A stretch of 64,000 nt of DNA from positions 806,001 through 870,000 of the forward strand of contig OX442316.1 in assembly GCA_949358305.1 (NCBI GenBank), in the 5' to 3' direction. Under the pieces are notes generated by a model, which was not told the origin of the DNA, searched no databases, and saw only the letters and a list, made by a program, of their open reading frames with translations. The DNA comes from Strigamia acuminata. Taxonomy: Eukaryota > Arthropoda > Chilopoda > Geophilomorpha > Linotaeniidae. The position numbers and the translations under genes are program-made. Shown piece by piece: positions 678 to 43,185 of the stretch; within the stretch, counting starts at the first letter, position 1, and each line of letters opens with the position of its first letter.

Positions 678-3600
678 ATGGCTTCTAATAGGCATGATGA
701 CTATAAAGATGTCAAGAAACTCGACGGCACGAACTATGCAACATGGGCGGTGCAGATTCAACTTCTGCTCAAATACAACGGTGTCTGGGGCCACGTGAAC
801 GGCACAGAGCCGAAATTGCCGGACACAGCGACGGCAAAGGAAAAAAGAGAATTTAATGTCCGGGAAGACAAAGCCATGTCTACGTTGTGCATGAGTTGCG
901 CCGAACCGCAACAGGTTATAGCCGTTGCCTGCCCCACTGCTGCAAAAGTATGGGAGGCGTTGAAAGCGGCTTACCAGCCGACAACGAGAGCACGTCGGGC
1001 TCGTCTTCGCCGCGAATTTCTCAATTTGAAACTGCTAGAGAATGAAGAAATGTTGGTTTTCACCGGAAGAGTGGATCGGAAAGTCACAGAATTAAAAGAT
1101 GTGAAGATTGACGTCTCCGATGAGTTCCTGGCATTTCAATACTTGGACCTTTTGCCCCCACAATACGAAGCTGTGAAGCAAACTGCATATCACTGGGGCG
1201 ATGCAGAGTTCACAGCCCAAAATGTCAAAGACAGGTTGCTTGGCGAATACAATCGCCTTTATGAGCAAAACAACGAGTTTGGCGTCGTACAAAGTGCAGT
1301 AGACAACGCAAATGCATTTTTTGGGAAAAGCAACTGGAAACCTCGAGGGAAAACTTCGAATTCGGCAGGGTTTCAGCGTGGCACGTGTTTTACTTGTGGC
1401 GGAACAGGCCACTTCGCCCGCGAATGCCCCTCGCCGCCGAAACAAGGGACAGTTGCCTCTAATGTCAGCTCACCTGCCCAATCGAAACGTGGGGGTGGTC
1501 GTGGCAAAGGACGAGGAAAGAGCCAGCAAAGGGCCAATCTTACCCAAATACACACGTTTGAAGACGAACCGCTTACGTTGTATTCTGCAGTTTTGGACGA
1601 GGCCCCGGCACAACCGTTGTCTCTTGTGTCGCACGGACAATTTGACTCGCAGTGGTACGTGGACACAGGAGCAACGGACCACTTTTCCTTCAACCGGAAC
1701 TGGTTCTCCGAGTATAAGCCTTTGTCCAACTTCAGTGTGTTACAAGGAGAAGGCAAATCGAAGATCGAAGGGGTCGGCAACATTATTCTTACCTCACTTT
1801 ATGGAAACAAACAAAGGAAAATAACTTTGGAAAATGTTTATTATGCGCCGAAATTCCGCAAGAATCTAATCTCGCTAGGGCGCACCGACGAAGCGGGGTT
1901 GTGCACATTTGTCAAGAATGGGAAAATGTCGATTTATATGAACAAGATCGAGGAGCCATCGATCACGGCAGTTAGAACAAGCGATAGGCTGTATAAAGTC
2001 AGCTGCCGTATCGAGGCTAAGAATGTAAACACGGCTGCATTAACTGCGCAACAGAATGCAGCTGCTGTCCTCGACTTGATCAAGTCATCTGTAAAGGATG
2101 AAAAATTTGTACAACCGTTACTAACCATGCTTAACTATAAGTCCGCTTTACTAAACAGTTCGAGTAAGTCGGATAAGGGAAAATCCGCACCAAATTTGAT
2201 TGCGCAAGTGAGCGAAACAACTAAGACAAACGCGCCTACGGCGATTACTTTGACAAAGACGGGAAATGAGGTTCAAATACCTCCTGCGAATTCTCCCCAA
2301 GCAAATGCGAATGCGAAAGTTAATGGGAATTTGACCAAAGTAACAGTGAAAAACAAAGAGCAGCCTCAGACCATGGACACATGGCACTCGAGAATGGGGC
2401 ATCTGAATGCTAAGGGCATCTCCCACTTGGAGAAATTGGAAGATGTGTTCGGGATTAGCATTTCAGACAGAAATTTGTCAACATGCGACGCATGTGCATG
2501 TGCGAAGAGCACGAGGGCAAGTTTTCCCCCTATTATTGCTATCTCTACGAAAGAGATTTTGTCCCTCGTACACATGGACGGGTGGGGCGCGTCACAGGAA
2601 CCGTCCCTGGGTGGAGCCAATTTTTACTTCATCCTAGTTGATGACTATTCACGTTATATGTGGATAATTACGATGAAGACCAAGGGGGAAGTTTTGGGCC
2701 ATTTCAAACGTTGGTTGACGGAAATAGAACGAACAACGGGAAAGAAAGTGAAATGTATCAAAACAGACAATGGCGGGGAGTTCATTTCCAGGAATTGGGA
2801 CGATTATGCGTCGAAAATTGGATTGAAGTGCATTCGCACGAACGCATACTCTCCGGAAATGAATTCCGTGGCCGAAAGGGCCAACCGTACCATTGTTAGC
2901 GGGGTTAGGGCTTTAATGATCGAGAACAGTTTCCCCTATCCCCTTTGGGCTGAATTGGCGACGACAGTCGTATACTTGAAAAACAGGTTTCCACATGCGG
3001 GGATTGAGGGGAAAACCCCTTACACGGTATTTTTCGACAAGAAATTGTCCCTACGCCATATTAAATGTATTGGATCGAAAACTTTCGTCCACATCCCATC
3101 CCAAGTCCGCAAAGGCAAATTACAAGGAAGGGCATGGGCGGGAGCTTTGATTGGATATGCAATATCCACAAGGGGCTACAGGATCTGGGATCCCATACGG
3201 AATCAAGTGTTTGCGTCTAAACATGTCCGCATTTTTGAGGATTCTTTTTGGTATGAAGTGGGCAAGAGATTGCATCATCCACAAAGTGGACATAAGGAAC
3301 CTGAATATTTTGGGGGTTCTCCTTCTGAAACCGAAGACGACGATGATGATTCCATTGCCCCTGCCGAAGAAGCTGAAGAAGAGGTTCAGGAAGTGGTTGT
3401 TGTCCCACCTCCTGCTCAACCTCCTGCCCAACCCCCTGCTCCGAAAGCAAAACCTGCATTACCCACAACCCCAAAGCCCGCTTTTAGGCCTGAATTGAGA
3501 CCACAGGTCAAGCAGGCGACACAACTGCCTGCAGTGGAAACTACTGCAGAGGATTTGGTTGGGGACGATGAACGTGGTGGGGATAATCCGATTGAAGAAA

Positions 3601-4128
3601 TTGGGGGGGCGAAGGGGGATGATGGAGAATTTTTCAACGTTTATCCCGAAGACGATGAGGAAGTCGAACTTCCTCCGGGAATACAAGCCCGTCGCGGTTC
3701 GGGCAAAAGGGGTAAAGTGAAAGAAACCCCAGACCCAATGTTGCTGCCACTGGACATGACTAAGTGGAGACGGGTTGCATCAGTCCGTAAAGCCGGGGCA
3801 ACTGCGGGAAAAGTTGATGTAGTCTATTTCTCACCCAATGAGGATAAATTGAGAAGTCGAACAGATGTTGCGCGATGGTGCGACGGGGAGGGTTTCGCAT
3901 ATGACCCGAGCTTGTTCGATTTCAAAACCTCTGACGGTGAAGAGCCCTTACCTTTTGCGGGGTTTTGCGCAGTTGAGCCTGACACCTACGAGGAGGCGAT
4001 TGGAGGCATCAACAAACCCTATTGGGAAGGGGCCATGAAGGACGAGATAGATATTTTCGATGAGCGAGAAGTCTATCGCGAAATTGACAAGCCTAAAGAC
4101 GTACAGCTTTTGGGGACAAAATGGATAT
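678..4128 (+). CDS. Copia-1 Gag-protease-integrase-MBD part of the polyprotein (interrupted)
   Basis: This is the N-terminal 1150 codons of a Copia polyprotein. The start MASNRHDDYK matches the MASE start of the related elements. Gag is residues 1-230 (DUF4219/UBN2-type). A CCHC zinc knuckle, CFTCGGTGHFARECP, lies near 236. The aspartic protease motif WYVDTGATDHFSF is near 325, and an HHCC zinc site with CDACACAK is near 570-620. The integrase catalytic residues are D634, D697 and E733, with DX35E spacing. Residues about 1027-1085 resemble a methyl-CpG-binding domain: W1030, VRKAG, AGKVDVVYFSP, LRSR and FDF at 1080. RT begins at EPDTYEEA. After 4128 the frame enters the inserted LTR and stops at 4142. 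The RT body resumes at 4626 in the frame expected after removing the insertion. Confidence 0.93.
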
Positions 4129-4621
4129 TGTTACGTGGCTAAATGGGGATTGATTTAGTCCTACGTGACATGAATTCAATCAAGAATGACACAGGGTTTT
4201 ATATGTAAAATGCCTGTTGGCTTTATTGTTCAAAGTCGGACATTTACTAATGTAAATGTTCGGTCATCAGCTCTTATTACATTTGTTCATTTATTAAACC
4301 TAAAACACATAAATGGTTCATTCAAATCAAATAAGGATGATGCTGTTGTTTATTCAATTCAATTCAGGAAACCTAGTCCTGCCTGACCGTCAACCGGCTG
4401 GCAGTAGTAGGTGAAGGTAACAGTTTGAGACTCAAAAGAGATCTGAGCTCTCTGGCTTAATCAACTCACTAAGTAAACTCCTATTCCCCCTATCAACTAA
4501 GTTGAACGGTCTGTGCATCTAATTAGGTGCGCAGCGCCGTCTAGTGAGAATTCATTACATTAAATGCCTAAACAGAGCGAGCAGAGCCAGCCGATACACG
4601 GTACGGCTCTACCGCGTAACA
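4129..4621 (-). mobile_element. Solo LTR of a Gypsy-2-like element inserted in Copia-1 pol
   Basis: A 493-bp segment begins TGTTACGTGG and ends CGCGTAACA, flanked by the 4-bp duplication ATAT (4125-4128 and 4622-4625). Its first ten bases equal the start of the Gypsy-2 LTR (21899 and 35715). A later block around CTCCTATTC also matches, so it belongs to a related family in the same orientation, with its coding strand on the minus strand. No internal domain is present, so it is a solo LTR, presumably left by LTR-LTR recombination after a full insertion. Removing it and one TSD copy restores the Copia-1 frame. Confidence 0.88.
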
Positions 4622-21720: not shown

Positions 21721-21898
21721 TGTGACGGTTACACTGTCATACACTTTGCTAGTTAAAGACGATTATTTCGTCAATAGATGGCGTTCTCGTGTTTTAGCGG
21801 TAATTTTGAACTTCGATCATTTTTAAGTAATTTAATATATAAATTATTATTTATATATTGAATTCACTTTAGTTTATAGTTATTAAACATGTTAATAT
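21721..21898 (+). repeat. Gypsy-1 5' LTR, first 178 bp
   Basis: Identical by eye to 60821-60998. It is cut at ATAT, where Gypsy-2 inserted, and continues at 36287. Confidence 0.95.
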
Positions 21899-22426
21899 TG
21901 TTACGTGGATTCTGGGCTTCAATCCGAGTTCCACGCAACTGTATTTTGACTGAGTGATAGAGAAAGAATGAGGCGTGTTTATATTTTAAATCCCAAACTT
22001 AAACTTTATTAGATCGGACAGACAAAGTCTGTTCGACCTTCAATAATTATGCGCTTTACAAATCGAATAAATCATCATCAACAACTTTGAATGAAATGGC
22101 ATTTATATTATATTAATTCAGTACAACTAAATAACACTTTACAACTGGGTGATAAATTGCATAAATCATAATATCAGAAGATAGCCGTCAGCCGTACCCT
22201 TTGTTTATCGGGCGACATTAGGCTAGTAAGTTAAATTGATGTTCTCTGAAAAGCAACATAAGATTAAGTGAGCTGTCTTAGAGTGGGTCAGTTCATAGGA
22301 AATCTCCTATTCTACCCTTAATCGAATTGATCGGTCCAACAGACGACGATGACGGTTTCCAATCGCCACGCCATCTGTTGCCGAAATTTAGCAACATTAA
22401 ACTAATAATGGATCAAATTACGTGTT
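21899..22426 (-). repeat. Gypsy-2 3' LTR, missing its first 40 bp
   Basis: Aligns without gaps to 35715-36242. The other copy continues for 40 more bases to a CA end (36243-36282). Here the sequence switches at once to unrelated DNA (from 22427), so the element-start end of this LTR and probably the polypurine tract were deleted. Between this LTR and pol lie ~470 bp of AT-rich 3' untranslated sequence. Confidence 0.9.
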
Positions 22427-22892
22427 TACTCTACTATGCTATTAAATTCAGCATTTTATAATTTTAAAACTTTACCCAAATTATTAAGCCTAATTAAAAT
22501 TCAATGCAGATGAACGAAGATCGCGTTGGGTCCTTTCGCGTCCCCGCCATTCGCACTTTCATTACTTCTTATTTATGCTTTAAAATCATTTTATTTCACA
22601 CTAATGTGTCATTAAATTTTACTCCTAATTATTTAAAATTTCAGTTTAAAACATTTTCACCTAATTAAAATTCTAACACGAATGAACGAACATGGCGATT
22701 AGTTTCACTTTACGAAAATTGCTCAAAAAACGTTTAAAACTTCAAAATTCATCTCTAAAATCACTTAAAATTATCAATATCATTCGTACAAACCTTTTGA
22801 AATACAATATCATACACAAAATATAAATAAATAGATAACAAAAGATTTTGTTTCCGGGTCACACTATGAGTTCGTGTTCACCGTAGCAAGAA

Positions 22893-23066
22893 TCAGTAGC
22901 AATGGCGATAGTCTTTTCGTTTCTGCGGTCTGAGTCTGCGCGACCGGAAATCGTCTTTTTGTGTATTTGCGCCATCTCGTGGCGGATTTTTAAGTTGATT
23001 TTCTTTAGTTCCTATCAAAGGCTGTGGTTCAAATAGCGATTTTAATGAGATCTGTTCTGTATCGTC
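22893..23066 (-). CDS. Gypsy-2 Pol C-terminal tail, cut off by Copia-3
   Basis: An open frame of 58 codons ends at a TGA at 22893. At 23067 it meets the TATGT duplication that flanks Copia-3. Removing Copia-3 and one duplication joins this frame to the frame that is open just right of 29807. The tail is basic and charged (for example FRSRRLRPQKRKD), as expected of an integrase C-terminal tail. The longer frame to 23171 runs into Copia-3 LTR sequence and is not a gene. Confidence 0.75.
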   Translation of the reverse strand, partial: DDTEQISLKSLFEPQPLIGTKENQLKNPPRDGANTQKDDFRSRRLRPQKRKDYRHCY

Positions 23067-23071
23067 TATGT

Positions 23072-23537
23072 TGATGAGATTGTAGGCGCCGGACATCAGG
23101 AAAATAGAGCTGAGACATGATTTAATGGGTGCGGGAACTCGCATTGCGCGACCGCCATCTTTAATCGTCACGAACCACAGTAAAAACGACTGCTTTGAGG
23201 CTAGCCGCCCTCAAAGTATGAATACAAGCTTACAATAGAACAAATCATTGTTAGCAAGCAATGATTTGTCCTTTACATGATAAACAATAAGGGAGGAGCA
23301 AATAAGCGATAAACAACTCAAAAGCAATGGAAAAACTAAACGAATATTGCTCATTTGAGCGGACGACGAGAAGGCACATCTTTACAAGTAAATAAACTAG
23401 TTGCGGCACATAACAAGCAGGGTAAAAAATCAGGATCAACTAGTTTAACTAAGTCACAGCAAAGTAAAGACATGCACGTTGCATTTAGCCATAAATATGC
23501 AACTAATAAATCTCAAACAGTTGGGCATATCCCAACA
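23072..23537 (-). repeat. Copia-3 3' LTR
   Basis: On the minus strand it begins TGTTGGGATATG and ends CTCATCA. It contains the hairpin GACAAATCATTG/CAATGATTTGTTC and AAAGATGGCGGTCGCG near the 3' end. Confidence 0.95.
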
Positions 23538-23554
23538 AATCCCCCTTTGCGCAA

Positions 23555-26500
23555 CTATTTGACTGCAACAAAAATATGCTCACAGAGCTGACATAATCTG
23601 GGGCGCGGCAACCATTTTGTCATCAAATCCGCGATGTTCAATTCGCCAGGCACATGTTTAATACTAAACACGCCTTTTTCATACCAATCACGAAGAAAGT
23701 GCAATTTAACATCTATATGTTTATTTGCACGGTTCTCGATCTTGTTTTTCGCATAATTGATTGCCGGCATGCTATCGGCGTAGACGCAAGGGACATTTCG
23801 GTTGAAACACAAGATGATATCGGCTTCGTACAGGCGTTCAAGCCATATCACTTCTCTCACGCCATCGACAACTGCGAGAAATTCGCTTTCCATTATACTC
23901 AATGAAGTCATGGATTGTTTTCGACAATTCCATGAAATCGGAACCCCTCCTAAATAAACTATGTGGCCACCAAAGCTTCTCCTACTGTCTTGATCCAAGG
24001 CAAAGGACGCGTCGGTGTAAACCGTTAAATTATTGTTCTTACAATTTGCCAGGTTGATAACATAGTTGGGGGTATTCGCCAGATATCTCAACACTTGTAT
24101 TAGCATTTTAACATGCCTGTTAGAATGGGTCTCATTGTATTGAGATAATACAATAACGCTGAAGAGAATATCTGGACGCGTTCTATTCGCGATAAAGAGT
24201 AAACTCCCTACTAGGGACCTGTATGGGAACGTCGAGTTTATTTGTTCACCCGGTTGTACCTTCTGTATCATGGTACCGACTGTGACTGGGATTTTAATTT
24301 TATGGCACGGATCAATGTCGTATTTCTCGACTAATTTCGCAATATAACTCTTTTGATGTACTAAAATGTCCCCATTTTTCCTTTCAAAATGAATCCCTAA
24401 TAAAAGAGTCACCGGTCCAAGGTTGACAATTTCAAAGCTCTCTTGAATCCACTCGATGATACATTGTTCAACGAAAGCATCACGACTAAACAAAACAATG
24501 TCGTCCACGTAAAACAAAAGTACGGCATCTGAGCCGTAATTATATACGCAATTCAGTCCTAAGACTGGAGTAAATCCTATTTCCAGTAATCGTTCGTGGA
24601 GCTTGAAATACCACATCCTTCCGGACTGGTGAAGTCCGTATAAGGATTTGACTAGACGCCAACACTTGTGTTGGTTCTCCTTGGTCCGGAAGCCCTTGGG
24701 GATATTAATGTATTGTGGCACATCAAGGTCTCCGTACAAGTACGCAGACTTGATGTCGAGATGTGTATCTCGCCAGCCTTGCAGAACCACAAGAGAACAA
24801 AAGAATATAAGCACGAGAACAAAGTTGACCACTGGTGAAAATATCTCAGTGAAGTCAACTCCCTCCTTCTGCCCAAAACCTTGCGCAACTAAACGTGCTC
24901 TCCAACGCTTAATTGCCCCAGTGTAGTCACGCTTGATTTTGTAAATCCATTTTGTTCCCAGTAAATTCATCCCCTCGGTTTTATCAACTTCCTCGTAAAC
25001 TTTCCTGTCATTAAAGATATTAATCTCATCATCCATGGCATCCTGCCAGTCGGATTTATTGGGGTTGGACATAGCTTCTTCGAAAGTATCCGGCTCGACG
25101 GATGCATGACCGGCGAACCCAACGGTCTCATCTGTTGCCTTAAAGTCGAAACAACCCCCATCGTACTGATAGTTTTCCTCTTTGCACCATCGTACAACAT
25201 CAATCCGACTGCGGATTCTATCGCCAAGTGGTGTTATGTAGATTACATCTACCTGGCCAGCAGTTTCACCACTCTGCCTAACGGTTTCTCTCCGCTGCCA
25301 TTGTGTCATATCTAAAATTTTTAACTTCTCGGGAGCAGCTGCACGCTGTTTCACTGTGTCCCCCTTTAACTTAACACCCCGTGGTGGGTTCCTCCTAACT
25401 GGTGGGGGGGTGAGAGTCGGATTTGGAAGCCGAACTTCCACTTGTTGCTCCTCCTCTTCTTCGATCCCACCAACAGCTTGGGCGATTTCTTCCACAGCTT
25501 CAGGCTCGACCGCCTGTTGGACTAATTGGGGATTCGGAATCGCATGTTTCGGGGCCTGAAACAACTGCTGTATGACAGGGGGCACCTGTTGCTGTTGTAC
25601 AGCAGGTAGGATCTCATCATCTGAATCTTCATCCCATGATGCCGCTACAAAATCTGGCTCACGTGGGATGGAATTTGATTGCACCGATTCATGCCAAAAA
25701 ACATTTTCATTAATCTTTACATGCTTTGAAGCAATCACTTGGTTGGACTTGGGGTCCCAAACTCGATACCCACGCGTCTTAATTGCGTAACCGACTAGGG
25801 CCCCAGGCCATGCCCTTTCTTCCAACTTGCTTCTCCTTGTTTGCGAAGGAATGTGCACGAAAACTTTAGATCCGATACATCTTAGATGTCTCAACGACAT
25901 TTTCTTGTTATGAAACAAGTTGTAAGGGGTTTTCCCACTCAAGCTTGCATGTGGGAATCTATTTTTAAGATAGACAACTGTCACGGCTAATTCTGCCCAC
26001 AAACCCTTTGGAAAATTGTTTTCGAAAAGCATGGCTCTAATTCCCCCAACAATTGTTCTGTTTGCTCTTTCGGCCACGGAATTCATTTCTGGGGAGTAGG
26101 GGTTTGTTTGGATGCACTTAAGCCCAATAGAAGCCGCATAGTCATCCCACTTTTTCGACACAAACTCCCCGCCGTTGTCTGTCTTGATGCATTTGACCTT
26201 TTTCCCGGTGCTGCGCTCAACTTGTGTTTGCCATCGTTTGAAGCGCTCAAATGTATCCCCCTTATTCTTGATAATTTCCACCCACATGAAACGCGAATAA
26301 TCATCTACAATTATTAGGTAATAGCTGGCCCCTCCCAAAGATTTAAAAGGCTGGGGGCCCCACAGATCCATGTGGATTACTTCCAAAATTCCCTTTGTAG
26401 AAATTTCCGGGATTGGGGAAAAGGTTGCCCTAGTGCTCTTTGCCTTCGAACACGCGTCACAGGGTGAAAGTTCTTTGTCGGAGAGTTTAACTCCGAAAAT

Positions 26501-28228
26501 ATCCGGTGAAATTTCCATTTTTGCAATCCCACTTGCGTTAAAATGGCCCATTCTGGAGTGCCAAATGTCCATTGGCTGTGGTTTCACTTTGATCTTTTCG
26601 ATTTTTCCCCCATTCGAATTATTTTGCCCGTTAGTATCATTTAAATCGCTTTTCTTAAGATTTGACGCATTTACTAGCGCATTTACGCTCACTTGCTGCT
26701 TCGCTGCAGTCTGCACTGCGCCACTCAATGTGTTTAGTAATGCTGCCTTAAAATCTACTGTTTTTAGTAAAGGATTAATGACACTTTCACTTTTTACAAC
26801 ATTTTTGACCGAATTTCCACCCACCGCTGCACTCTGTTGCGCAGAAGGTGCAGTTGTGTTCACAATATTGGCCTCTATTTTGCAGTTAACTTTGTACATC
26901 CGATCATTAGTTTTATCTGCAACAAGGAAAGGCTCACCAATTCGGTCTCTAAACATGGTCAACTTTCCATTTTTGATAAAAGTTGTGAAACCAGCTTCAT
27001 CTGTCCGGCCCAGCGATAAGAGATTTTTCTTAAAATTTGGCGCAAAATACACATTTTGCAGTGTGATTTCCCTACATCTGCCTGCATAACAAGATGTAAT
27101 CAACACGTTTCCAATGCCCTCGATTTTAGACTTCCCTTCCCCCTGCTGGACACTATAGCCGGACAGTGGCTTGAAGGTCACGAACCAACTTCTATTAAAT
27201 GAAAAGTGATCTGTCGCACCGGTATCTATGTACCAGTGCGGATCAAAGTCGCAATGTGACATCAAAGACAATGGTGGTGACAAGGTGACTTCCTCTTCAG
27301 TTTGGTGAACTGCCGCTGAAAACATTGTCAAGGGCTCATCAAAAATGTCAACTTGTCCCAAATTGGCCTTTTTGGTCTTTCCACCACGGCCACGTCCTCG
27401 TGCAGTGCCTTTTGCTAGCTGTGCAGAGGTGCCACCTCGTTGGCTTTGCATATTCGCTTGTTGTTTGGGCGGTGACGGGCATTCTCTCGCGAAGTGACCA
27501 GTGCCGCCACAGGAAAAACAAGTCCGAGGTGTAAATGGCTGATTTCCGCCTTTTCCGCGTTGGAATCGCCCTTTTCCAAAGAATGCGCCTGCATTATCAG
27601 TGGAATCCTGTGTACGCATACCATAGGAGTCTGAAGCTTCAAATAAACGATTATACTCTCCTAATAATCGGTCTTTCACTTTTGCAGGGGTGAAGTCCAA
27701 ATCCTCCCAGTGATACATTATTTGTTTTATAGTCTCATAAGTTGTAGGGAGGAAATCCATGTATTGGAATGCAATTTCCTCATCCGTCGGTATTACTTTG
27801 ACATTCGCGAGTTCCGCGACTTTTCTGTCGACACGGGCCAGAAAACACATCATCTCCTCATTGTCCATTAGATGCATTTGCAGGAACTCGCGCCTCAATC
27901 TGCCTTTCCGGGCGCGTGTGGTGGGCTGGTAAGCATCTCGGATTGCTTCCCACGCTCCTTTAGAAGTATCTTTGGCAACGGCCACGAGCTGTTGCGCTTC
28001 TTCGCAACTCAAGCATATCGTGGACCATGCTCGCTTCTCACGCACTCTAAAATCCCGTTTCTCTTTGGCTGTGGCGTTGGGACCCGGCGCGGTCTCGTCG
28101 CCCGTCACGTGGTCCCACACGCCTTGCTGGGATAACAACAACTTCGCACCAATCGCCCATTGTGCATAATTTGTCCCATTTAGTTTTTTGATTGACTTAT
28201 AATCGTCGCATTTCTCCTCCGACGCCAT
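23555..28228 (-). CDS. Copia-3 Gag-Pol polyprotein with MBD-like domain (intact)
   Basis: 1557 residues from ATG at 28228. Gag is 1-230, with zinc knuckle CFSCGGTGHFARECP at 237. Protease is DTGATDHFSF with the active Asp at 335. The HHCC site includes CDACSKAKSTRATF. Integrase has D621, D684 and E720, with DX35E spacing. A methyl-CpG-binding-like domain spans ~974-1031: W977, VRQSG, AGQVDVIYITP, RIRSR and FDF at 1027. RT has the catalytic YVDD at 1240-1243. RNase H shows VYTDASFALDQDSRRSFGG, MESEFLAVVDG, YADSMPAINY and ANKHIDVKLHF, and the C-terminus ends at LMTKWLPRPR. No frameshift or stop. Protease should cleave the single polyprotein, and particles assemble in the cytoplasm in this family. 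Confidence 0.97.
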   Translation of the reverse strand: MASEEKCDDYKSIKKLNGTNYAQWAIGAKLLLSQQGVWDHVTGDETAPGPNATAKEKRDFRVREKRAWSTICLSCEEAQQLVAVAKDTSKGAWEAIRDAYQPTTRARKGRLRREFLQMHLMDNEEMMCFLARVDRKVAELANVKVIPTDEEIAFQYMDFLPTTYETIKQIMYHWEDLDFTPAKVKDRLLGEYNRLFEASDSYGMRTQDSTDNAGAFFGKGRFQRGKGGNQPFTPRTCFSCGGTGHFARECPSPPKQQANMQSQRGGTSAQLAKGTARGRGRGGKTKKANLGQVDIFDEPLTMFSAAVHQTEEEVTLSPPLSLMSHCDFDPHWYIDTGATDHFSFNRSWFVTFKPLSGYSVQQGEGKSKIEGIGNVLITSCYAGRCREITLQNVYFAPNFKKNLLSLGRTDEAGFTTFIKNGKLTMFRDRIGEPFLVADKTNDRMYKVNCKIEANIVNTTAPSAQQSAAVGGNSVKNVVKSESVINPLLKTVDFKAALLNTLSGAVQTAAKQQVSVNALVNASNLKKSDLNDTNGQNNSNGGKIEKIKVKPQPMDIWHSRMGHFNASGIAKMEISPDIFGVKLSDKELSPCDACSKAKSTRATFSPIPEISTKGILEVIHMDLWGPQPFKSLGGASYYLIIVDDYSRFMWVEIIKNKGDTFERFKRWQTQVERSTGKKVKCIKTDNGGEFVSKKWDDYAASIGLKCIQTNPYSPEMNSVAERANRTIVGGIRAMLFENNFPKGLWAELAVTVVYLKNRFPHASLSGKTPYNLFHNKKMSLRHLRCIGSKVFVHIPSQTRRSKLEERAWPGALVGYAIKTRGYRVWDPKSNQVIASKHVKINENVFWHESVQSNSIPREPDFVAASWDEDSDDEILPAVQQQQVPPVIQQLFQAPKHAIPNPQLVQQAVEPEAVEEIAQAVGGIEEEEEQQVEVRLPNPTLTPPPVRRNPPRGVKLKGDTVKQRAAAPEKLKILDMTQWQRRETVRQSGETAGQVDVIYITPLGDRIRSRIDVVRWCKEENYQYDGGCFDFKATDETVGFAGHASVEPDTFEEAMSNPNKSDWQDAMDDEINIFNDRKVYEEVDKTEGMNLLGTKWIYKIKRDYTGAIKRWRARLVAQGFGQKEGVDFTEIFSPVVNFVLVLIFFCSLVVLQGWRDTHLDIKSAYLYGDLDVPQYINIPKGFRTKENQHKCWRLVKSLYGLHQSGRMWYFKLHERLLEIGFTPVLGLNCVYNYGSDAVLLFYVDDIVLFSRDAFVEQCIIEWIQESFEIVNLGPVTLLLGIHFERKNGDILVHQKSYIAKLVEKYDIDPCHKIKIPVTVGTMIQKVQPGEQINSTFPYRSLVGSLLFIANRTRPDILFSVIVLSQYNETHSNRHVKMLIQVLRYLANTPNYVINLANCKNNNLTVYTDASFALDQDSRRSFGGHIVYLGGVPISWNCRKQSMTSLSIMESEFLAVVDGVREVIWLERLYEADIILCFNRNVPCVYADSMPAINYAKNKIENRANKHIDVKLHFLRDWYEKGVFSIKHVPGELNIADLMTKWLPRPRLCQLCEHIFVAVK

Positions 28229-28380
28229 ATCTAGTCGATTCGTCGCGAAGATTACACTTTATCACTAAATAAATCGTCGCACACACCAAATGAAGCACAA
28301 AACACACTCTTTACGCTTTTATAAATGGCGTAAACCCCCAAAAGGTTTAGGCGAAAAATTATACAGTCTCCCTTGGACAA

Positions 28381-28519
28381 ATCTCACTAAGTGAGATGCA
28401 AAACTTTACGTAGTATCTCCCGAGTTCCGACCGGACTCCTAGGACCGCGGGACACTCGGTGGCCAGAGAAAGCCTACGCAAAAATACAATTCCACTACGC
28501 GACTGCGTAAAGGGTGGAA
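28381..28519 (-). promoter_or_regulatory. Conserved branched leader RNA fold, Copia-3 copy
   Basis: On the minus strand: outer stem TTCCAC/GTGGAA with CCTT bulge and inner stem TACGC/GCGTA with loop AGTC (28490-28519). The long-range helix TTTGCGTAG/CTACGTAAA has one G-U pair, and the nested CCGAGT/ACTCGG is perfect. The terminal hairpin is ATCTCA/TGAGAT with loop CTTAG (28381-28397). TCCCGCG is conserved unpaired. Confidence 0.82.
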
Positions 28520-29335
28520 AGGATACTACAAGACCCCCAAACAAAACCTTAAACTTATTAACAATGAATTTCGACAACTTAAAACTAAATAATAGTTGGC
28601 AAGGTGAAAATCCGTTGTTTTGCGGGTTGGTTTGCGTCGCAAAAATTCCCTCGTTGATCCCACGTCGTGAAATCGATGCACGTCGACTCAACGTGCTCGT
28701 CCGCACCTTCGTAGGATGTGCTCCGTGCACAAAACCTCGGGAAAATGCCAGCGCGTACGTTTAACCCGCTAACTGGTCTTCTAGGTGCTCAAATAGCTGA
28801 TGCCTGTGTGCAAATTTATGCCCACACAGGTCCTTACGTTGAAAATTATTCTCACACGTCGTTTTTCGTCTGCTTTGACGAAAAATCCGGCCGCCGTCGA
28901 AAAATCGATTCGCACGATGACTTCCGTGTTGATTTTCAACGAAAAACGGTCCAAAAATTACGTCGTTTCGACGTATTCTTTGTTGAATCGTGATGAGAGC
29001 GTGTGTCGATCCGTACACACGATTCTCTGCTGGCTTCACGGCCGTACGCGATGAAGTCAAAAAAAATGGCGCCGCAGAAGAAAAATCTTCTTTATATCGG
29101 CAAATGTGCTTATTTCGCACGAAAAAACGACAATTCTCACACTGTTTTGTTCCAAATTCGTTGGCGAATTGCCCGCACACGTTGTCAAAGCTCGTCCGCT
29201 TTGCTAAAATCCCGAAAACGGCGATACGTCTCTGCGACGATACCGACGAAGTCGCGATGTCCGTTCCTTCACAAAAATCGCCGCCAATTCATCACAAACG
29301 GTTGGCCGCGTCGTCAACCATCCTCTGCTACCAAA
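28520..29335 (-). other. Copia-3 leader, upstream part, with PBS at 29318-29333
   Basis: The PBS TGGTAGCAGAGGATGG (minus strand) is a perfect 16-base complement of the animal initiator tRNA-Met 3' end, two bases from the LTR. The remainder is CpG-rich, with repeated CGAAAAAT-type segments like those in the Copia-2 and Copia-5 leaders. No coding frame is credible. Confidence 0.8.
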
Positions 29336-29801
29336 TGATGAGATTGTAGGCGCCGGACATCAGGAAAATAGAGCTGAGACATGATTTAATGGGTGCGGGA
29401 ACTCGCATTGCGCGACCGCCATCTTTAATCGTCACGAACCACAGTAAAAACGACTGCTTTGAGGCTAGCCGCCCTCAAAGTATGAATACAAGCTTACAAT
29501 AGAACAAATCATTGTTAGCAAGCAATGATTTGTCCTTTACATGATAAACAATAAGGGAGGAGCAAATAAGCGATAAACAACTCAAAAGCAATGGAAAAAC
29601 TAAACGAATATTGCTCATTTGAGCGGACGACGAGAAGGCACATCTTTACAAGTAAATAAACTAGTTGCGGCACATAACAAGCAGGGTAAAAAATCAGGAT
29701 CAACTAGTTTAACTAAGTCACAGCAAAGTAAAGACATGCACGTTGCATTTAGCCATAAATATGCAACTAATAAATCTCAAACAGTTGGGCATATCCCAAC
29801 A
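29336..29801 (-). repeat. Copia-3 5' LTR
   Basis: Identical by eye to 23072-23537. Followed on the right by the TATGT duplication and Gypsy-2 pol. Confidence 0.95.
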
Positions 29802-29835
29802 TATGTAACGTTCTTTTGGTTTGATTTTCGTTATT

Positions 29836-32800
29836 TCAACTGGTTTTTCGATGTTTTCTACTACAATTTGTCCTTTTTTTACTGATTTTCTTTACTTTAT
29901 CAGCAAATTTCACTTTCTTTTCTGGTAATTCTTTCAAAACTTCGTCTATTTCTGGTTCAACTCGTTCTTTATACGGTTTCAGTCTTTCTACATTCACTAT
30001 ATCACTTTTCTTTCTTGTTGAATTGATTATTTCATAATCATTCGGTGCAGTTCTTCGCACAATTTCATATGGGCCGGAAAATTGCGGTAAAAGCTTCTCT
30101 GATAAGCCAACTTTTCTGTTGATGGTTTTCAAATATACCAATTCACCTGGTTCAAACTCTTTGTTGACTCTATCTTCATCAAACCTTTTCTTGCTTTTTG
30201 CTGATTGTTTTTCAAGCCTCTCATTTGCAATTTTCCTGGCTGCTCGAATGAATTTCGCTGTTCTTAAAGTAAACTCTTTCTGTGGCAAATCAAGATTTAC
30301 ATCTACTGTCAAATCCACATCATATCCTCGTAAAAGATAGTGTGGTGTATAACCTGTTGTTTCATGAACTCCCGTGTTATATGAAAACAGGAGAAATGGA
30401 AGAAATTCGTCCCAGTCAGTATGTTCTTCATTAACGTAACTTTGCAACATTTTTGCGAATGTCGCATTAAATCTCTCAGTTAATCCGTTTGTTCTTGGAT
30501 GGTATCCTGACGTAGTTTTATGCAAACTTTTAAACATATTTGAGACTTCCTCAACCATTTTATTCCTGTATTCTGTTCCACGGTCACTTAAAATCTCTCT
30601 TGGACTGCCTTCTTTCAGAATTACTTCATATAACAACGTTCTTGCTGCTTCTAACGCTGTAGCTGCTGCCGCTGGTCTAGCTATTGCATTTCTCGAAAGA
30701 TAATCAGTCACAACAAAAACATGTTTATTTCCAAGACGTGATAATGGAAATGGTCCAAGCGTATCTATTCCAATTCGCTCAAAAGGCTTTGAAACTGTTG
30801 ACCATGGCTGCATTAGTCCCTTCGCTGGTGTAGTCATCGTTTTTGCTTTCGCGCAACTTTGGCAGGACAAGACGTAATTTCTAACGTCCCTATAAATTCT
30901 TGTCCAAAAGAATCGTGTTCTTATTCGTTTCCATGTTTTTGCCAAACCCAAATGAGCTCCTAGTAATCCATCGTGCATTTCGTATAATACATCTGCTTGA
31001 AGTTGTTTTGGAACTACTAGTAACAAATCTTCCATGTTCAGGGAACTATTTAATTTTTTCTTCCTGAACAACGTTTTGTTTTGAAGAACGAACTGCTTTA
31101 GAGGTCGTCTTCTTTTTCTTGGAAGTTGCTCTTGGTTTTCTAGCGCTGTTATGAGGTCCAGAAGTTTAGGATCCTTCCTCTGCTCAGCAGGGAGGTCCAA
31201 ATTTTCTAAGAGAAGCGAAGGCAATTTTTGGATTTCTTCTTCACTTAACTCTTCCTGGATCCTACTCAGGGCATCAGCATCTGTGTGCTTCTTGCCACTT
31301 TTATGAAATATATCAAAATCATACTCAGCTAGTTGCAGCGCCCACCTGGCTAGACGTCCATTTGGATTTCGGACTCCTTTCAGCCATTGGAGGGCAGAAT
31401 GGTCGGTAATAATTTGGAATTTCTGTCCATATAAGTACGGTCTAAACTTTTCAATAGCAAAAATGATTGCTAACATTTCCCTTTCAGTTGCAGTGTAATT
31501 CATTTCTGCTGTGCTCATCATACGACTTGCATAAGCGATGGCACGCTCTTGATTGTTGACTTTTTGCTTCAAAATAGCTCCTAATCCATAGGCACTTGCA
31601 TCGCATGAAATCATGAAGGGCTGAGTAAAATCTGGATGCGCTAACACCGGCACTGTTATTAATGCTGTTCGAAGCGTGTGGAATGCTTTTTCATGGGGGG
31701 GTCCCCAATCAAACTTTTCATCCTTTTTGGTTAAATTCACCAGAGGTTTGGAAATGTCCGCAAAACCTTTAATAAATTTCCGGTAATACGAGCATAATCC
31801 TAAAAAACCACGTAGTTGTTTAACGTTCACAGGAATTGGAAACTTGGCCACAGAATCCAGGTTCCTGGGATCCGGTGAAATACCTTCCGCATCAACCACA
31901 TGTCCGAGGTATCGTATGGTGTGTGTCGCAAACGTACATTTACTCAGTTTGACTTTTAAATTCGCTGCTCTCAGCTTTTCGAAAACTGCCTCCAAATCGA
32001 CGAGGTGCTGGTCGAAAGTCTTTGAAAACACTATCAAATCGTCAAGATATGCTATGCATACTTTTCCCAGGAGGTTACCAAGTACCTTATTCATCAATTT
32101 TTGAAAGGCTGCTGGACTGTTACATAATCCCATTCCAAGGACATTAAACTCATAGTGTCCGCTTGAAGTAGTGAACGCTGTTTTCTCACGATCTTGTTCA
32201 TCTATTTCGACCTGGTGATATCCCTGTATGAGATCCATCATTGAAAAATACTTTGCACCCGCTAGCTGATCTAGGGTGTCATCTATACGCGGTAAGGGAT
32301 ACACCATTTTCTTTGTCACTGCATTCAAACGTCTCCAATCTACACAAAATCTCCATTTGCCATCTCTCTTCTTGATGAGTAGTACTGGTGCACTCCATGG
32401 GCTCTCGGATTCTCTAATGACTCCTTGCTCAAGTAACTTTTTTGTTTCAGCATCCTCGATTTCTTTTTCCTTAATTGATCGTCTATAAGGTTGTAAATGG
32501 ATTGGAGGAGAATCTCCAGTATCTATTCGATGCCTAATCGTGTGAGCTCTGCCTAAATCATTATCAGTCTTCGCAAATCTATCTGAATTTTTCTTCAACA
32601 ATTGTAGCATCAGCTCTTGTTGTGATGGCGTCATATTGTCATTTGCCATAGACGTGCTAAAGTCAAAATGATCATCTCTTTTTTCATCTAGCACGCCAGA
32701 CTCAATTACATAAAAAGCTTTTGCAATTGCTGAATTACGTCCTAAATAAATTGTCTTTTTAGTCGGATTTGCAACTCGCAGAACTCCTTCACCTTTTCTG

Positions 32801-33438
32801 AATTTGGTCAATGTTTTACAGCAAATCACTCCAAATCGATCTACTACTCCACTAAGTGGTTCAATAAATAATTCATCATCTACTTTCTTTGCAATTTTTA
32901 TTGGTACTACACATTCATGTAAAGCTGGTATAGTAATAGGTTTCAAAACTCGAGCTATGTAATTTTGATCGGTATGATTTTTAGACATTGGGAAAATTTC
33001 TTGTTGTTCATCTTTTGGGCCTACAAAGATCTTCTGGTGGTCATAATCAAGTTTACACCTCGCAGATGTCAGAAAGCTATGTCCAAGCAGTAAATGGTGG
33101 CCAAATCCGTTGACGATCAGCACTTCAATGGTGTGTTGCTGTTGTCCAACGTCAATAGTGATCTTGGTTTTTCCTTCTGGGATTATTATTGAACCATCTA
33201 CAACTCTAAGTCGAATGTATGGACATGGTTGATATTTGAGCTGCAATGTTCTTACCAAATCTTCATTAATAATATTACGATAACCTCCAGAATCCAAGAC
33301 ACCTGTTATCTCCATACCATTCACCACTACTGGAATTTGCAAAAGTTCATCTGTGGCGTTCAACTCAATAATTTCTAACTTCCTTTTTCTTCTTCTCTTC
33401 TTTTTGTTATTTCGTCTTTGTGGCCATTCTAGTTTCCC
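29836..33438 (-). CDS. Gypsy-2 Pol: protease, RT, RNase H, integrase (entered by -1 frameshift)
   Basis: Open from the frameshift site at 33438 with no ATG. Protease carries GVLDSGGYRNII and LLLGHSFL. RT shows WRFCVDWRRLNAVT, LIQGYHQVEID and catalytic AYLDDLIVFS. RNase H shows ISCDASAYGLGAIL, TEREMLAIIFAIEKFRPY, ITDHSALQWL and DADALSRI. The integrase zinc finger is H..H..SCQSCAKAK, and its catalytic residues sit in GIDTLGPF, LSDRGTEYRN and GLTERFNATF. A run of seven A (29874-29880, minus strand) shifts the frame, so the ORF ends at 29836. The neighbouring frame stays open to the Copia-3 boundary and continues at 23066, so a one-base insertion probably broke the tail. No chromodomain or envelope gene is seen. 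Confidence 0.93.
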   Translation of the reverse strand, partial: GKLEWPQRRNNKKKRRRKRKLEIIELNATDELLQIPVVVNGMEITGVLDSGGYRNIINEDLVRTLQLKYQPCPYIRLRVVDGSIIIPEGKTKITIDVGQQQHTIEVLIVNGFGHHLLLGHSFLTSARCKLDYDHQKIFVGPKDEQQEIFPMSKNHTDQNYIARVLKPITIPALHECVVPIKIAKKVDDELFIEPLSGVVDRFGVICCKTLTKFRKGEGVLRVANPTKKTIYLGRNSAIAKAFYVIESGVLDEKRDDHFDFSTSMANDNMTPSQQELMLQLLKKNSDRFAKTDNDLGRAHTIRHRIDTGDSPPIHLQPYRRSIKEKEIEDAETKKLLEQGVIRESESPWSAPVLLIKKRDGKWRFCVDWRRLNAVTKKMVYPLPRIDDTLDQLAGAKYFSMMDLIQGYHQVEIDEQDREKTAFTTSSGHYEFNVLGMGLCNSPAAFQKLMNKVLGNLLGKVCIAYLDDLIVFSKTFDQHLVDLEAVFEKLRAANLKVKLSKCTFATHTIRYLGHVVDAEGISPDPRNLDSVAKFPIPVNVKQLRGFLGLCSYYRKFIKGFADISKPLVNLTKKDEKFDWGPPHEKAFHTLRTALITVPVLAHPDFTQPFMISCDASAYGLGAILKQKVNNQERAIAYASRMMSTAEMNYTATEREMLAIIFAIEKFRPYLYGQKFQIITDHSALQWLKGVRNPNGRLARWALQLAEYDFDIFHKSGKKHTDADALSRIQEELSEEEIQKLPSLLLENLDLPAEQRKDPKLLDLITALENQEQLPRKRRRPLKQFVLQNKTLFRKKKLNSSLNMEDLLLVVPKQLQADVLYEMHDGLLGAHLGLAKTWKRIRTRFFWTRIYRDVRNYVLSCQSCAKAKTMTTPAKGLMQPWSTVSKPFERIGIDTLGPFPLSRLGNKHVFVVTDYLSRNAIARPAAAATALEAARTLLYEVILKEGSPREILSDRGTEYRNKMVEEVSNMFKSLHKTTSGYHPRTNGLTERFNATFAKMLQSYVNEEHTDWDEFLPFLLFSYNTGVHETTGYTPHYLLRGYDVDLTVDVNLDLPQKEFTLRTAKFIRAARKIANERLEKQSAKSKKRFDEDRVNKEFEPGELVYLKTINRKVGLSEKLLPQFSGPYEIVRRTAPNDYEIINSTRKKSDIVNVERLKPYKERVEPEIDEVLKELPEKKVKFADKVKKISKKRTNCSRKHRKTS

Positions 33439-34922
33439 GATGCATTAGGTGGTCCACCACGTGGGGCTCCTCGATTTCCTCGGCCTTGGTAATTTTCAAT
33501 AAAATTTTTACCTTTATAATTTGGATTTTTAGGATGACCTTGGTTATTTGGATTCCCCTGTTGTCTTTGACCTTGTGGTGGGTTCCTTTGCTGTTGTGGC
33601 GGATTCCATTGCTGTTGTGGATATTGCTGTTGGAATCCTTGACCTGAATTATTCCAATTACCTCTATTTTGACCTCTATTGTTCCATCCTCTACCTTGGT
33701 TCCAATTACTGTTGTTATTCCACCATCCACGTTGTTGTCCAGGTCGTCCTCTAAAGTTTCCTCTATTATAGAACTGGGCCTGGTTTGGATGTGGCGTATA
33801 CCATTGATTTTGGTAGAAGACTGGAGTGACCTCTGCATATTGAACGTCCCCAAACTGCTGTTGTTGTCTTAGCACTTTGACCTCTGCTAACAACTCGTCT
33901 TTTGTTTTATTGACGTCGCTCGGTTCTACCAAGCAACTTGGTGTCACCTTGCTAGGTGTATCAACAGCTTTTTGCAGTAGGGTTAGTAAAACTTCTGCAG
34001 GGTCCTCATTGAATGCATGAGCTTCCAATAACCCAAGTTGAGATGTTAGTTGATCCAACGTCTTTGGAAAGTTGACTACTAATTTATCTCTAGTCGCCTT
34101 TTTAAGTGTCTGAAACACATGAAATATCTTTTGCTCTTCAGTGAATGATGGTCTTGCAAAAGAACATTCTTTTAATATCTTCTGCATGTGTTCCAAAGCT
34201 GTTCCATCCTTGTGCTGCATTGCTTGTAATTTCGACAAAATCGTTGTTATTTGTCGTCTAAACTTCGTCTTCAACGCATCTTTCCATTGTGTCCATGTTC
34301 TAGTCGGATACAGTGGAAGTTGATCTAAATACCATGATGATGCGGAAGATTTCAGCACAATTGACAGATGCTTAATACGTTCAGTATCATCGGCGATCGT
34401 ATCTTCATATCCAATCAACCACGTGTCAATATTTCCTGTAGCCGGATCAAAATCAACTGGATTTCTTCTATTGACCACTAAGTTTTGTAACACTGTCTGT
34501 ATTGCTACCAGTTCTGATGATGGCGAAGCATTAGCCATTTTAGTAGAAGATTGTTCAATTTTTATTTCCACTTTTGGTTGAATTGGTTCCTCGTGCTCTT
34601 CAATATCTTTGGCTGCGTCCTCAAATACGTCGTCCAAATTTACCTGTACCCTTTCCAAAAGATCGCCTAATTCTGATTGTTCCTTAGGCAATAACCAATT
34701 ATACACCTCTGGATCTATTAATCTTTTATTACGCTGCTCGGGAGTTTCAAGATCTTCCCTTTTTTGTGTTTTTTGTTCACCTTTGGATTTTGATCTATAC
34801 TTCCGACCAGTTACTTTATCATCCAGTAACTCTTTGGGTGTATCAGGTTCTCCTGGTTCCTTTTTGGAAAACAGATAATCTGCTACAAACTCTGGCAGCT
34901 TATAACGTTTGGATTCCGCAAT
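33429..34922 (-). CDS. Gypsy-2 Gag (probable start codon lost, ATT at 34920-34922)
   Basis: The frame is open from just after a TAA near 34930 down to TAG at 33429, ~497 codons. There is no ATG at the expected start. ATT GCG GAA TCC stands where ATG GCG would be natural, so this is a lost start, a non-AUG start or a spliced start. The central part (FDPATGNIDTWLIGYEDTI..WYLDQLP..W..FRRQ) is a retrotransposon Gag capsid-like region. The C-terminus is Arg/Gly, Asn and Gln rich (NNRGQNRGNWNN, PQQQWNPPQQQ) and has no CCHC knuckle, so RNA binding probably relies on RG-rich sequence. Confidence 0.85.
   Translation of the reverse strand: MAESKRYKLPEFVADYLFSKKEPGEPDTPKELLDDKVTGRKYRSKSKGEQKTQKREDLETPEQRNKRLIDPEVYNWLLPKEQSELGDLLERVQVNLDDVFEDAAKDIEEHEEPIQPKVEIKIEQSSTKMANASPSSELVAIQTVLQNLVVNRRNPVDFDPATGNIDTWLIGYEDTIADDTERIKHLSIVLKSSASSWYLDQLPLYPTRTWTQWKDALKTKFRRQITTILSKLQAMQHKDGTALEHMQKILKECSFARPSFTEEQKIFHVFQTLKKATRDKLVVNFPKTLDQLTSQLGLLEAHAFNEDPAEVLLTLLQKAVDTPSKVTPSCLVEPSDVNKTKDELLAEVKVLRQQQQFGDVQYAEVTPVFYQNQWYTPHPNQAQFYNRGNFRGRPGQQRGWWNNNSNWNQGRGWNNRGQNRGNWNNSGQGFQQQYPQQQWNPPQQQRNPPQGQRQQGNPNNQGHPKNPNYKGKNFIENYQGRGNRGAPRGGPPNASGN
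33432..33438 (-). promoter_or_regulatory. Gypsy-2 -1 frameshift heptamer G GGA AAC
   Basis: The last two gag codons are GGA AAC, preceded by G and followed at once by the TAG stop. A -1 slip re-reads GGG AAA and enters the pol frame, which is open from here. GGGAAAC fits the X XXY YYZ rule of retroviral frameshift sites. The next ~60 nt are purine-rich and I saw no strong stem. Confidence 0.82.
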
Positions 34923-35714
34923 GATTAATTAATTAAACTGAAGACACAATCCTTTGAAGCACTTAGAATCAGTTTATTCAATTGTAAATAACACTATAAC
35001 ACTCTTTACTCTCTGAAAACAAGTCAATGATTAAACAGTTCAAACAATTCAATTTTCACAATCTAATTTCAAAATTTTCAAAACAATTAAATTTTCACGG
35101 TCATATTTCAAAACTTTATTAAATCTATTAGTAGCAAATATTTAAGAAAACCTTTCATTAGTAAATAATTACAAAAATATCCTGAAATTCAAAAATTCAT
35201 TAATAAATTCAAACTATATATTTTATTAATATACACTTTCATCAAAATGGAAAACACTAAATTCCTTATTTAATAATTATAAACGTCACCATTCACATTC
35301 AATTCACAATTAAACTCCACAATAAATATCACTCAATATCACTTCATTCAATTAAATATTCAAAGTTATTTTGTTATATTTTATCTCTTAATTTCACCAA
35401 TTTTAAAACTCAATTAAGTCTATTATCTTTATTAACAATGAGTCACCTTTTTCATTTCTATCGCCCTTATCAATGAGTCATCTGTATGCAAATTAAGTTA
35501 CAGTTTTTCAAAATTTTATATGATTTTTAAACTAATTTTCCACAAATTTCAATTCTAATTGCTTTAATTTCCCAATTTTAATTTTCCAATTTCCTGAAAA
35601 ACTAATCACTAGGTAAACTCAAGCAAAACTAAGCTTAATTTCAAAATTTTCACTAATTTTCAAATTTTATTCTAATTTTTATGCGGTATGGGAAAGACTC
35701 GCATCTCCACCATT
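34923..35714 (-). other. Gypsy-2 leader with PBS-like site at 35701-35712
   Basis: Very AT-rich and noncoding. Three bases from the LTR the minus strand reads TGGTGGAGATGC, a 12-base complement to a tRNA end GCATCTCCACCA, as found on some animal tRNA-Ala. The match does not extend further, so the tRNA assignment is tentative. Confidence 0.65.
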
Positions 35715-36282
35715 TGTTACGTGGATTCTGGGCTTCAATCCGAGTTCCACGCAACTGTATTTTGACTGAGTGATAGAGAAAGAATGAGGCGTGTTTATAT
35801 TTTAAATCCCAAACTTAAACTTTATTAGATCGGACAGACAAAGTCTGTTCGACCTTCAATAATTATGCGCTTTACAAATCGAATAAATCATCATCAACAA
35901 CTTTGAATGAAATGGCATTTATATTATATTAATTCAGTACAACTAAATAACACTTTACAACTGGGTGATAAATTGCATAAATCATAATATCAGAAGATAG
36001 CCGTCAGCCGTACCCTTTGTTTATCGGGCGACATTAGGCTAGTAAGTTAAATTGATGTTCTCTGAAAAGCAACATAAGATTAAGTGAGCTGTCTTAGAGT
36101 GGGTCAGTTCATAGGCAATCTCCTATTCTACCCTTAATCGAATTGATCGGTCCAACAGACGACGATGACGGTTTCCAATCGCCACGCCATCTGTTGCCGA
36201 AATTTAGCAACATTAAACTAATAATGGATCAAATTACGTGTTACGAATCGCGCATTAATCGACACGGTTCGTACACGTGACA
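35715..36282 (-). repeat. Gypsy-2 5' LTR (568 bp, complete)
   Basis: On the minus strand it begins TGTCACGTG and ends CCACGTAACA. The last 528 bp match the 3' LTR with about one difference. It has TG..CA ends and a 4-bp ATAT duplication outside. Confidence 0.92.
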
Positions 36283-36286
36283 ATAT

Positions 36287-37672: not shown

Positions 37673-37674
37673 CG

Positions 37675-43166: not shown

Positions 43167-43185
43167 CCCCCTCTGGACAACTGTG

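What the first reader, a model, noticed from the sequence alone, without database searches (positions are those of the whole stretch)
3715..3930. Methyl-CpG-binding-like domain inside Copia polyproteins, between integrase and RT (Copia-1 shown)
In Copia-1, residues ~1027-1085 read W-x-R, VRKAG, TAGKVDVVYFSP, KLRSR and SLFDF. This is the order and spacing of the MBD fold of MeCP2 and MBD2. Both arginine fingers (VRK and LRS) and the Asp that orients one of them are kept; the position of the conserved methyl-contact Tyr is Val. I know chromodomains at the end of some Gypsy integrases, but I do not know of an MBD in a Copia Pol. If real, the integration complex could read CpG methylation and steer insertion into methylated DNA such as other transposons.
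Basis: partly seen in the sequence, partly recalled or inferred. Interest (0 to 1): 0.96.

Follow-up and report, generated by a model that had tools for sequence, protein, structure and literature searches.

The report
Known methyl-CpG reader in Copia retrotransposons
Jumping genes in this centipede genome carry a genuine copy of the animal protein part that recognises methylated DNA, a striking arrangement that was already published in 2019, and the copies checked sit in CpG-rich DNA as that idea predicts.

Summary
Copia-1 residues 1029-1084 (window 3762-3929) match Pfam MBD at E=8.2e-10. MBD2 is the nearest solved relative and the predicted fold matches MBD/TAM structures. Copia-2 passes the Pfam cut-off, Copia-3 falls just short and Copia-4 is weak. 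In the 237.5 Mb host genome, 150 of 150 scored matches (1,092 candidates) pass it.

The host is a Strigamia centipede by mitochondrial gene order.

It is not new. [quoted passage not shown] I saw only the title, in reference lists; the paper is not held.

My check fits regional targeting: DNA beside MBD-Copia insertions has about 8 CpG per 100 bp, against 3.0 beside one MBD-less Gypsy family and 3.6 at sampled sites. Methylation, binding and integration were not tested. One open point: 27 of 34 MBDs examined carry Val or Ile instead of the methyl-contact Tyr.

The parts
3762..3929 (+). MBD of Copia-1 (residues 1029-1084)
   Evidence: Pfam MBD 38.6 bits E=8.2e-10; PDB MBD2 2ky8 E=1.5e-9; AF2 + Foldseek
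678..4142 (+). Copia-1 gag-to-integrase-MBD open frame; RT frame interrupted, resuming within 4523-6013
   Evidence: Pfam domains, ORFs, interrupting stretch read
25136..25300 (-). MBD of Copia-2 (residues 977-1031 of 23558-28228)
   Evidence: Pfam 41.5 bits E=1e-10; same place listed
23072..29801 (-). Copia-2 element, LTRs 23072-23537 and 29336-29801 identical, 5-bp TSD TATGT, inside Gypsy-1
44776..44952 (-). MBD-like region of Copia-3 (residues 987-1045); both Arg kept, Asp and Tyr positions changed
   Evidence: Pfam 19.3 bits, just under the cut-off of 21
42686..49571 (-). Copia-3 element, LTRs about 42686-43166 and 49091-49571, TSD CTACA, inserted in the pol frame of Gypsy-2
   Evidence: exact LTR limits and TSD read by eye
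50159..50326 (-). MBD-like remnant of Copia-4; both arginine fingers lost
   Evidence: Pfam 15.5 bits, below the cut-off
49690..55229 (-). Copia-4 element, LTRs 49690-49901 and 55018-55229 identical, TSD CGATG, inside Gypsy-2
21898..36242 (-). Gypsy-1, target of Copia-2; LTRs 21898-22426 and 35714-36242
   Evidence: named Gypsy by reading the frames; not scanned against Pfam
36282..62384 (+). Gypsy-2, target of Copia-3 and Copia-4; LTRs 36282-37672 and 60994-62384
   Evidence: named Gypsy by reading the frames; not scanned against Pfam

Best explanation
The window holds several members of the MBD-carrying Copia retrotransposons of Strigamia already in print ('CopiaMBD', name recalled). A methyl-CpG-binding domain lies in the polyprotein after the integrase SH3-like domain and before the reverse transcriptase. 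Most likely it stays attached to the integrase tail in the pre-integration complex and holds that complex on CpG-dense, methylated chromatin such as other transposons, so that insertions fall regionally in such DNA. Shown here: domain, fold, position, low dN/dS, spread through the genome, and CpG-dense surroundings of near-identical copies. Inferred: attachment to integrase, binding to 5mC, and an effect during integration rather than after it.
For: MBD profile, solved relatives and fold. dN/dS of the MBD 0.112 (Copia-1 vs family F1), 0.125 (Copia-1 vs L005) and 0.059 (L003 vs L004), in each pair below the linker before it and the stretch after it. 150 of 150 scored MBD matches in the host over the Pfam cut-off, of 1,092 candidates. 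Host identified as Strigamia, for which 0.758 of 719 annotated TEs fall in the highly methylated group (PMC7343188, passages). Four DNMT1-type genes and one DNMT2-type gene found here. CpG per 100 bp in the 166 bp beside insertions, medians: F1 8.43 (n=19), F2 7.83 (n=13 right flanks), Gypsy-2 3.01 (n=12), sampled sites 3.61 (n=20); F1+F2 vs Gypsy-2 p=0.00026, vs sampled p=0.0057; GpC does not differ (p=0.56, 0.64). In the window, 3 of 3 Copias with both LTRs found sit inside Gypsy elements, though two of the three have MBDs below the Pfam cut-off. [quoted passage not shown]
Against: The contact Tyr is Val or Ile in 27 of 34 MBDs, including every fetched copy of the multicopy families F1 and F2, which could weaken the preference for methylated CpG. 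No fine-scale attraction: the nearest CpG to the 13 F2 target-site centres averages 8.3 bp against 5.8 bp expected at other positions of the same sites. No excess of CpG>TpG singletons in two families (26 of 316 CpG cytosines vs 76 of 1152 others; 28 of 380 vs 94 of 1057, rough: flanks and diverged copies not removed), so no sign of strong germline methylation of these copies; the window's CpG observed/expected is 1.05. GC content also differs, so CpG density is partly a base-composition effect (p=0.0012 vs Gypsy-2, 0.033 vs sampled). Few flanks match the window's TE proteins (F1 4 of 19, F2 1 of 13, Gypsy-2 1 of 12, sampled 0 of 20; the F2 query joined both sides and was longer), so landing in transposons is shown only for the window. 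In the first pair the integrase side is under tighter constraint (0.043) than the MBD.
Confidence: 0.75

Rival explanations
1. The multicopy families have become readers of CpG density rather than of methylation: with Val or Ile at the contact Tyr the domain holds any CpG-dense DNA through its two arginine fingers.
For: Arg/Asp/Arg/Ser kept but Tyr replaced in 27 of 34 MBDs, including every fetched copy of F1 and F2; Tyr with both Arg and the Asp in 5 of 34 (L001-L004, L006), from lineages that appear once or twice in the scored list; Copia-4 has the Tyr but has lost both Arg. MBD3, with Phe there, is less methyl-selective (recalled). F1 and F2 insertions still lie in CpG-dense DNA.
Against: The published title calls the captured domain functionally active; I do not know which family was tested. 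The 30 genomic MBDs are the top Pfam scores of a capped list, a biased sample.
Confidence: 0.25
2. The CpG-dense surroundings arise after insertion: copies in genes and other CpG-poor functional DNA are purged, and the MBD does something else, such as shielding or recruiting silencing factors.
For: Only surviving insertions are seen. S. maritima has regions of unusually high CpG content (PMC4244043, passages).
Against: Gypsy-2, whose window copy has 99.86% identical LTRs and whose LTR ends are identical at 30 of the 40 listed places, does not show the CpG bias. The F2 copies examined are young: 13 of 16 pairs with perfect 5-bp TSDs.
Confidence: 0.25
3. The resemblance to MBD is a chance match of a linker.
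For: None found for Copia-1 and Copia-2. Copia-3 and Copia-4 score below the Pfam cut-off.
Against: Profile E-values to 1e-10, solved relatives, fold and low dN/dS.
Confidence: 0.01

Closest known systems
MBD-carrying retrotransposon family of arthropods (de Mendoza, Pflueger, Lister 2019, Genome Res 29:1277-1286; title seen; Copia, Strigamia maritima and a spider are recalled)
   Same: Host genus, Copia order, captured MBD, accumulation in CpG-dense DNA (all but the title recalled).
   Different: Nothing found here that sets these apart. Whether the published copies carry Val/Ile at the Tyr position, and which were tested for binding, I could not check (paper not held).
MBD2/MBD1/MeCP2/MBD4 methyl-CpG-binding domains (PF01429)
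   Same: Fold, both Arg fingers, Asp.
   Different: Embedded in a retrotransposon polyprotein; contact Tyr replaced by Val/Ile in the multicopy families fetched.
Chromodomain-carrying retrotransposon integrases (Gao et al. 2008, title seen)
   Same: A chromatin reader captured next to the integrase that directs insertion to heterochromatin.
   Different: Reads histone methylation, not DNA methylation, and sits in Gypsy-type elements (both recalled).
Retrotransposons carrying DNA methyltransferases (de Mendoza 2018, PMC5890265, passages)
   Same: Capture of a host DNA-methylation protein by retrotransposons.
   Different: A writer, not a reader; dinoflagellates and charophytes (abstract start).

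Membership tests
MBD (PF01429) | Profile score above the curated cut-off of 21 bits | tested here: met
   Copia-1 38.6, Copia-2 41.5 bits; Copia-3 19.3 and Copia-4 15.5 do not meet it
MBD (PF01429) | MBD alpha/beta fold | tested here: met
   AF2 on Copia-1: mean pLDDT 71.7, residues 21-80 block means 77-90; Foldseek first 44 rows MBD/TAM, best E 7.1e-5, TM to target 0.75 (MBD4 3vyq) and 0.79 (MBD2 6cnp_B), lower for other chains; second look by VIA-align not available
MBD (PF01429) | Two arginine fingers and orienting Asp | tested here: met
   32 of 34 MBDs examined; Copia-3 lacks the Asp, Copia-4 lacks both Arg and the Asp
MBD (PF01429) | Methyl-contact Tyr | tested here: not met
   Val in Copia-1, Ile in Copia-2. 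Not essential to family membership (MBD3 has Phe, recalled)
MBD (PF01429) | Selective binding to methylated CpG | not testable with these tools
   No binding data here
Strigamia MBD-Copia family (de Mendoza 2019) | Copia domain order with MBD between integrase and RT | tested here: met
   Copia-2: gag, BBD, rve, SH3, MBD, RVT_2 in order in one frame; Copia-3 the same with MBD just below its cut-off
Strigamia MBD-Copia family (de Mendoza 2019) | Host is Strigamia | tested here: met
   cox1-cox2-cox3-nad6-nad2 and atp6-cob-nad3 on one strand, nad1-rrnL-rrnS on the other as in Table 1 of PMC4368715 (section read), an order reported as unique; species not settled
Strigamia MBD-Copia family (de Mendoza 2019) | Insertions in CpG-dense DNA compared with other LTR elements (recalled claim) | tested here: met
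   one MBD-less family as control, small samples
Strigamia MBD-Copia family (de Mendoza 2019) | Sequence identity to the published copies | not tested
   Paper not held

The most novel reading that the evidence does not exclude
The multicopy, near-identical families have replaced the methyl-contact Tyr with Val/Ile and now read CpG density whatever its methylation, a switch from a 5mC reader to a CpG-landscape reader that freed the element from the host methylome.
Probability: 0.2. Interest if true: 0.5.

Novelty: already known. Interest (0 to 1): 0.25.

Why it matters
A mobile element that carries a reader of DNA methylation is a clean natural case of a parasite using the host epigenome to choose where to land. 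The capture has been in print since 2019. What remains useful here is a check on a chromosome-scale assembly, the nested insertions in Gypsy elements, and the point that most copies examined lack the contact Tyr.

Tried and rejected
Protein homologues: a search of 5.8 billion proteins with Copia-2 residues 850-1090 gave 711 candidates and none at E<=0.001; I suspect the collection holds few animal proteins, so this says little about rarity.

Host guesses: a chaetognath (Paraspadella) was considered from the first mitochondrial genes seen and rejected because the mitochondrial contig is 15,068 bp and encodes atp6 (that chaetognaths lack atp6 is recalled). Strigamia then fitted.

Literature: searches did not show the 2019 paper; it was found through a remark in PMC7343188 and its reference list. 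Searches list papers that hold its title words. No held passage that I saw describes its content beyond that remark. Of all papers I read passages, abstracts or single sections, none whole.

CpG>TpG mutation spectrum: no excess, but flanks and diverged copies were not removed, so it is weak. Nearest-CpG test at target sites: negative. The sampled sites were chosen by me at round coordinates, 20 sites on 7 contigs. One fetched piece (L047) was misplaced and left out of the flank counts. Three of 16 F2 site pairs had no clean TSD and were left out; one kept pair (L124/L125) flanks a tandem array rather than a single element. Eight of 20 Gypsy-2 loci were 5' LTR sides and were left out. The F1 set has right flanks only. 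Gypsy-1 was meant as a second control but its flanks could not be cut.

Full report
What is there. The open frame at window 678-4142 (+) is a Copia gag-pol frame: Retrotran_gag_2, zinc knuckle, Pol_BBD, gag_pre-integrs, rve (32.4 bits, just under its cut-off of 32.6), SH3_retrovirus at residues 787-859, then MBD at residues 1029-1084. The MBD lies at window 3762-3929 and scores 38.6 bits against a cut-off of 21. Searched alone, a 109-residue piece gives E=2.7e-11 and hits solved MBD2 (2ky8, E=1.5e-9), MBD1, MBD3, MBD4 and MeCP2. An AlphaFold2 model of the Copia-1 domain, with the four window MBDs as alignment, has mean pLDDT 71.7 and block means of 77-90 over residues 21-80. The first 44 rows of its Foldseek matches in the PDB are MBD or TAM domains.

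Neighbours. Three further Copias in the window match the domain at the same place: Copia-2 (41.5 bits), Copia-3 (19.3 bits, just below the cut-off) and Copia-4 (15.5 bits). Copia-2 has identical LTRs and a 5-bp target duplication and sits inside Gypsy-1. Copia-3 and Copia-4 sit inside Gypsy-2. Copia-1 is interrupted in its RT region by a stretch of very roughly 450-500 bases after residue 1154; RT reading resumes within 4523-6013. Another copy with the same 1,160-residue frame lies 7,123 bp upstream in the genome, while other places in the list have frames of about 1,618 residues.

Genome. The window is G000:C4:806001-870000 of a 237.5 Mb assembly. A search with PF01429 scored 150 of 1,092 candidates; all 150 passed E<=0.001 and the cut-off. 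Many lie in frames of 1,500-1,700 residues. Loci L001, L003/L004 and L006 show three more, diverged Copia lineages with the MBD between integrase and RT. I infer that the capture is old within these elements.

Host. The mitochondrial contig C157 (15,068 bp, of which I read 1-11,400) has cox1-cox2-cox3-nad6-nad2 and atp6-cob-nad3 on one strand and nad1 on the other (protein genes named by me from the translations). The large rRNA is on the nad1 strand by Rfam (138 bits), and a weak small-rRNA match, below its gathering score, lies between it and cox1. [quoted passage not shown] The Strigamia genome paper reports one long and seven short chromosome pairs, four Dnmt1 genes and one Dnmt3 (PMC4244043, passages). 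Here contig C1 is 67.0 Mb and the next is 37.8 Mb. I saw ten contigs of 9.6 Mb or more (lengths), more than eight, so the karyotype fit is loose. PF00145 gave 11 matches. Exons of four separate genes hit solved DNMT1 at 2.3e-62, 8.1e-57, 1.8e-52 and 1.6e-41, and one hits DNMT2 at 2.9e-24. I did not find the Dnmt3; an exon-wise search may miss it. The species within Strigamia is not settled. In S. maritima 0.758 of 719 annotated TEs are in the highly methylated group (PMC7343188, passages).

Already in print. PMC7343188 remarks that a recent paper reported a relatively recent TE family of S. [quoted passage not shown] The paper is not held. From recall, it reports Copia elements with a host-derived MBD in Strigamia, binding to CpG-dense methylated DNA, insertions in CpG-dense regions, and a spider case with insertions in methylated gene bodies. 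The finding is therefore a rediscovery.

My own tests. (1) Key residues in 34 MBDs (30 best-scoring genome loci plus 4 in the window): Arg-Asp-Val-Arg-Ser in 18, Arg-Asp-Ile-Arg-Ser in 9, Arg-Asp-Tyr-Arg-Ser in 5, and two degenerate patterns, Copia-3 and Copia-4. (2) Selection: dN/dS in the MBD 0.112 (Copia-1 vs F1), 0.125 (Copia-1 vs L005), 0.059 (L003 vs L004); in the other three pairs dS could not be estimated for the MBD. The integrase side in the first pair is lower still (0.043). (3) Insertion surroundings, 166 bp: median CpG per 100 bp 8.43 for F1 (19 flanks), 7.83 for F2 (13 right flanks; left flanks 6.63), 3.01 for Gypsy-2 (12), 3.61 for sampled sites (20). F1+F2 against Gypsy-2 p=0.00026 and against sampled sites p=0.0057; observed/expected CpG medians 1.55, 0.92 and 1.10. 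GpC does not differ, GC does. With about 1 kb at F2 sites: 8.10 against 2.60 (500 bp, Gypsy-2) and 3.93 (700 bp, sampled), p=0.0028 and 0.0005. Tests are two-sided Mann-Whitney, not corrected for their number. (4) Fine scale: no attraction to the nearest CpG. Any targeting is regional. (5) Mutation spectrum: no CpG>TpG excess, which does not support strong germline methylation of these copies but is a rough test.

Mechanism. The place after the integrase SH3-like domain is where other Copia/Ty elements keep their targeting segments (Ty5, Ty1; recalled). An MBD there would hold the integration complex on CpG-dense methylated chromatin. I give this 0.75. The main doubts are the missing contact Tyr in the multicopy families, post-insertion selection, and a single control family.

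Verdict.

Noticed in passing
window about 4130-4620 and G000:C4:802639-802806: Copia-1's RT region is interrupted by a non-coding stretch; a copy with the same 1,160-residue frame lies 7,123 bp upstream, suggesting duplication after the interruption.
   Followed up: partly
window 49690-55229: Copia-4 has identical LTRs but a 1,014-residue frame with only SH3-like and a weak MBD match in Pfam, both arginine fingers lost and no gag or RT match in that frame: a young insertion of a defective or non-autonomous element.
   Followed up: partly
window 15410-17888: Satellite array with a unit of about 147 bp.
   Followed up: no
L114/L115 and L126/L127: Two of 13 F2 insertions lie in a CpG-rich short tandem repeat with unit GACGTAACC.
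   Followed up: no
G000:C5:2332491-2345138: Three identical F2 LTR ends spaced 6,264 bp: a tandem array of elements sharing LTRs.
   Followed up: no
G000 Gypsy-2 LTR places: Several Gypsy-2 LTR pairs are about 5 kb apart, others about 12 kb: perhaps internally deleted, non-autonomous copies beside full ones.
   Followed up: no
window 21720-21902 and 60820-61001: The left flank of Gypsy-1 matches the 3' end of Gypsy-2's interior and the start of its LTR (99.5%), so Gypsy-1 seems to have inserted into a fragment of another Gypsy-2 copy.
   Followed up: no
G000:C3:20309085-20309201: The weakest listed MBD match (35 bits, 110-residue frame) may be an exon of a host MBD gene, a possible source of the captured domain.
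   Followed up: no
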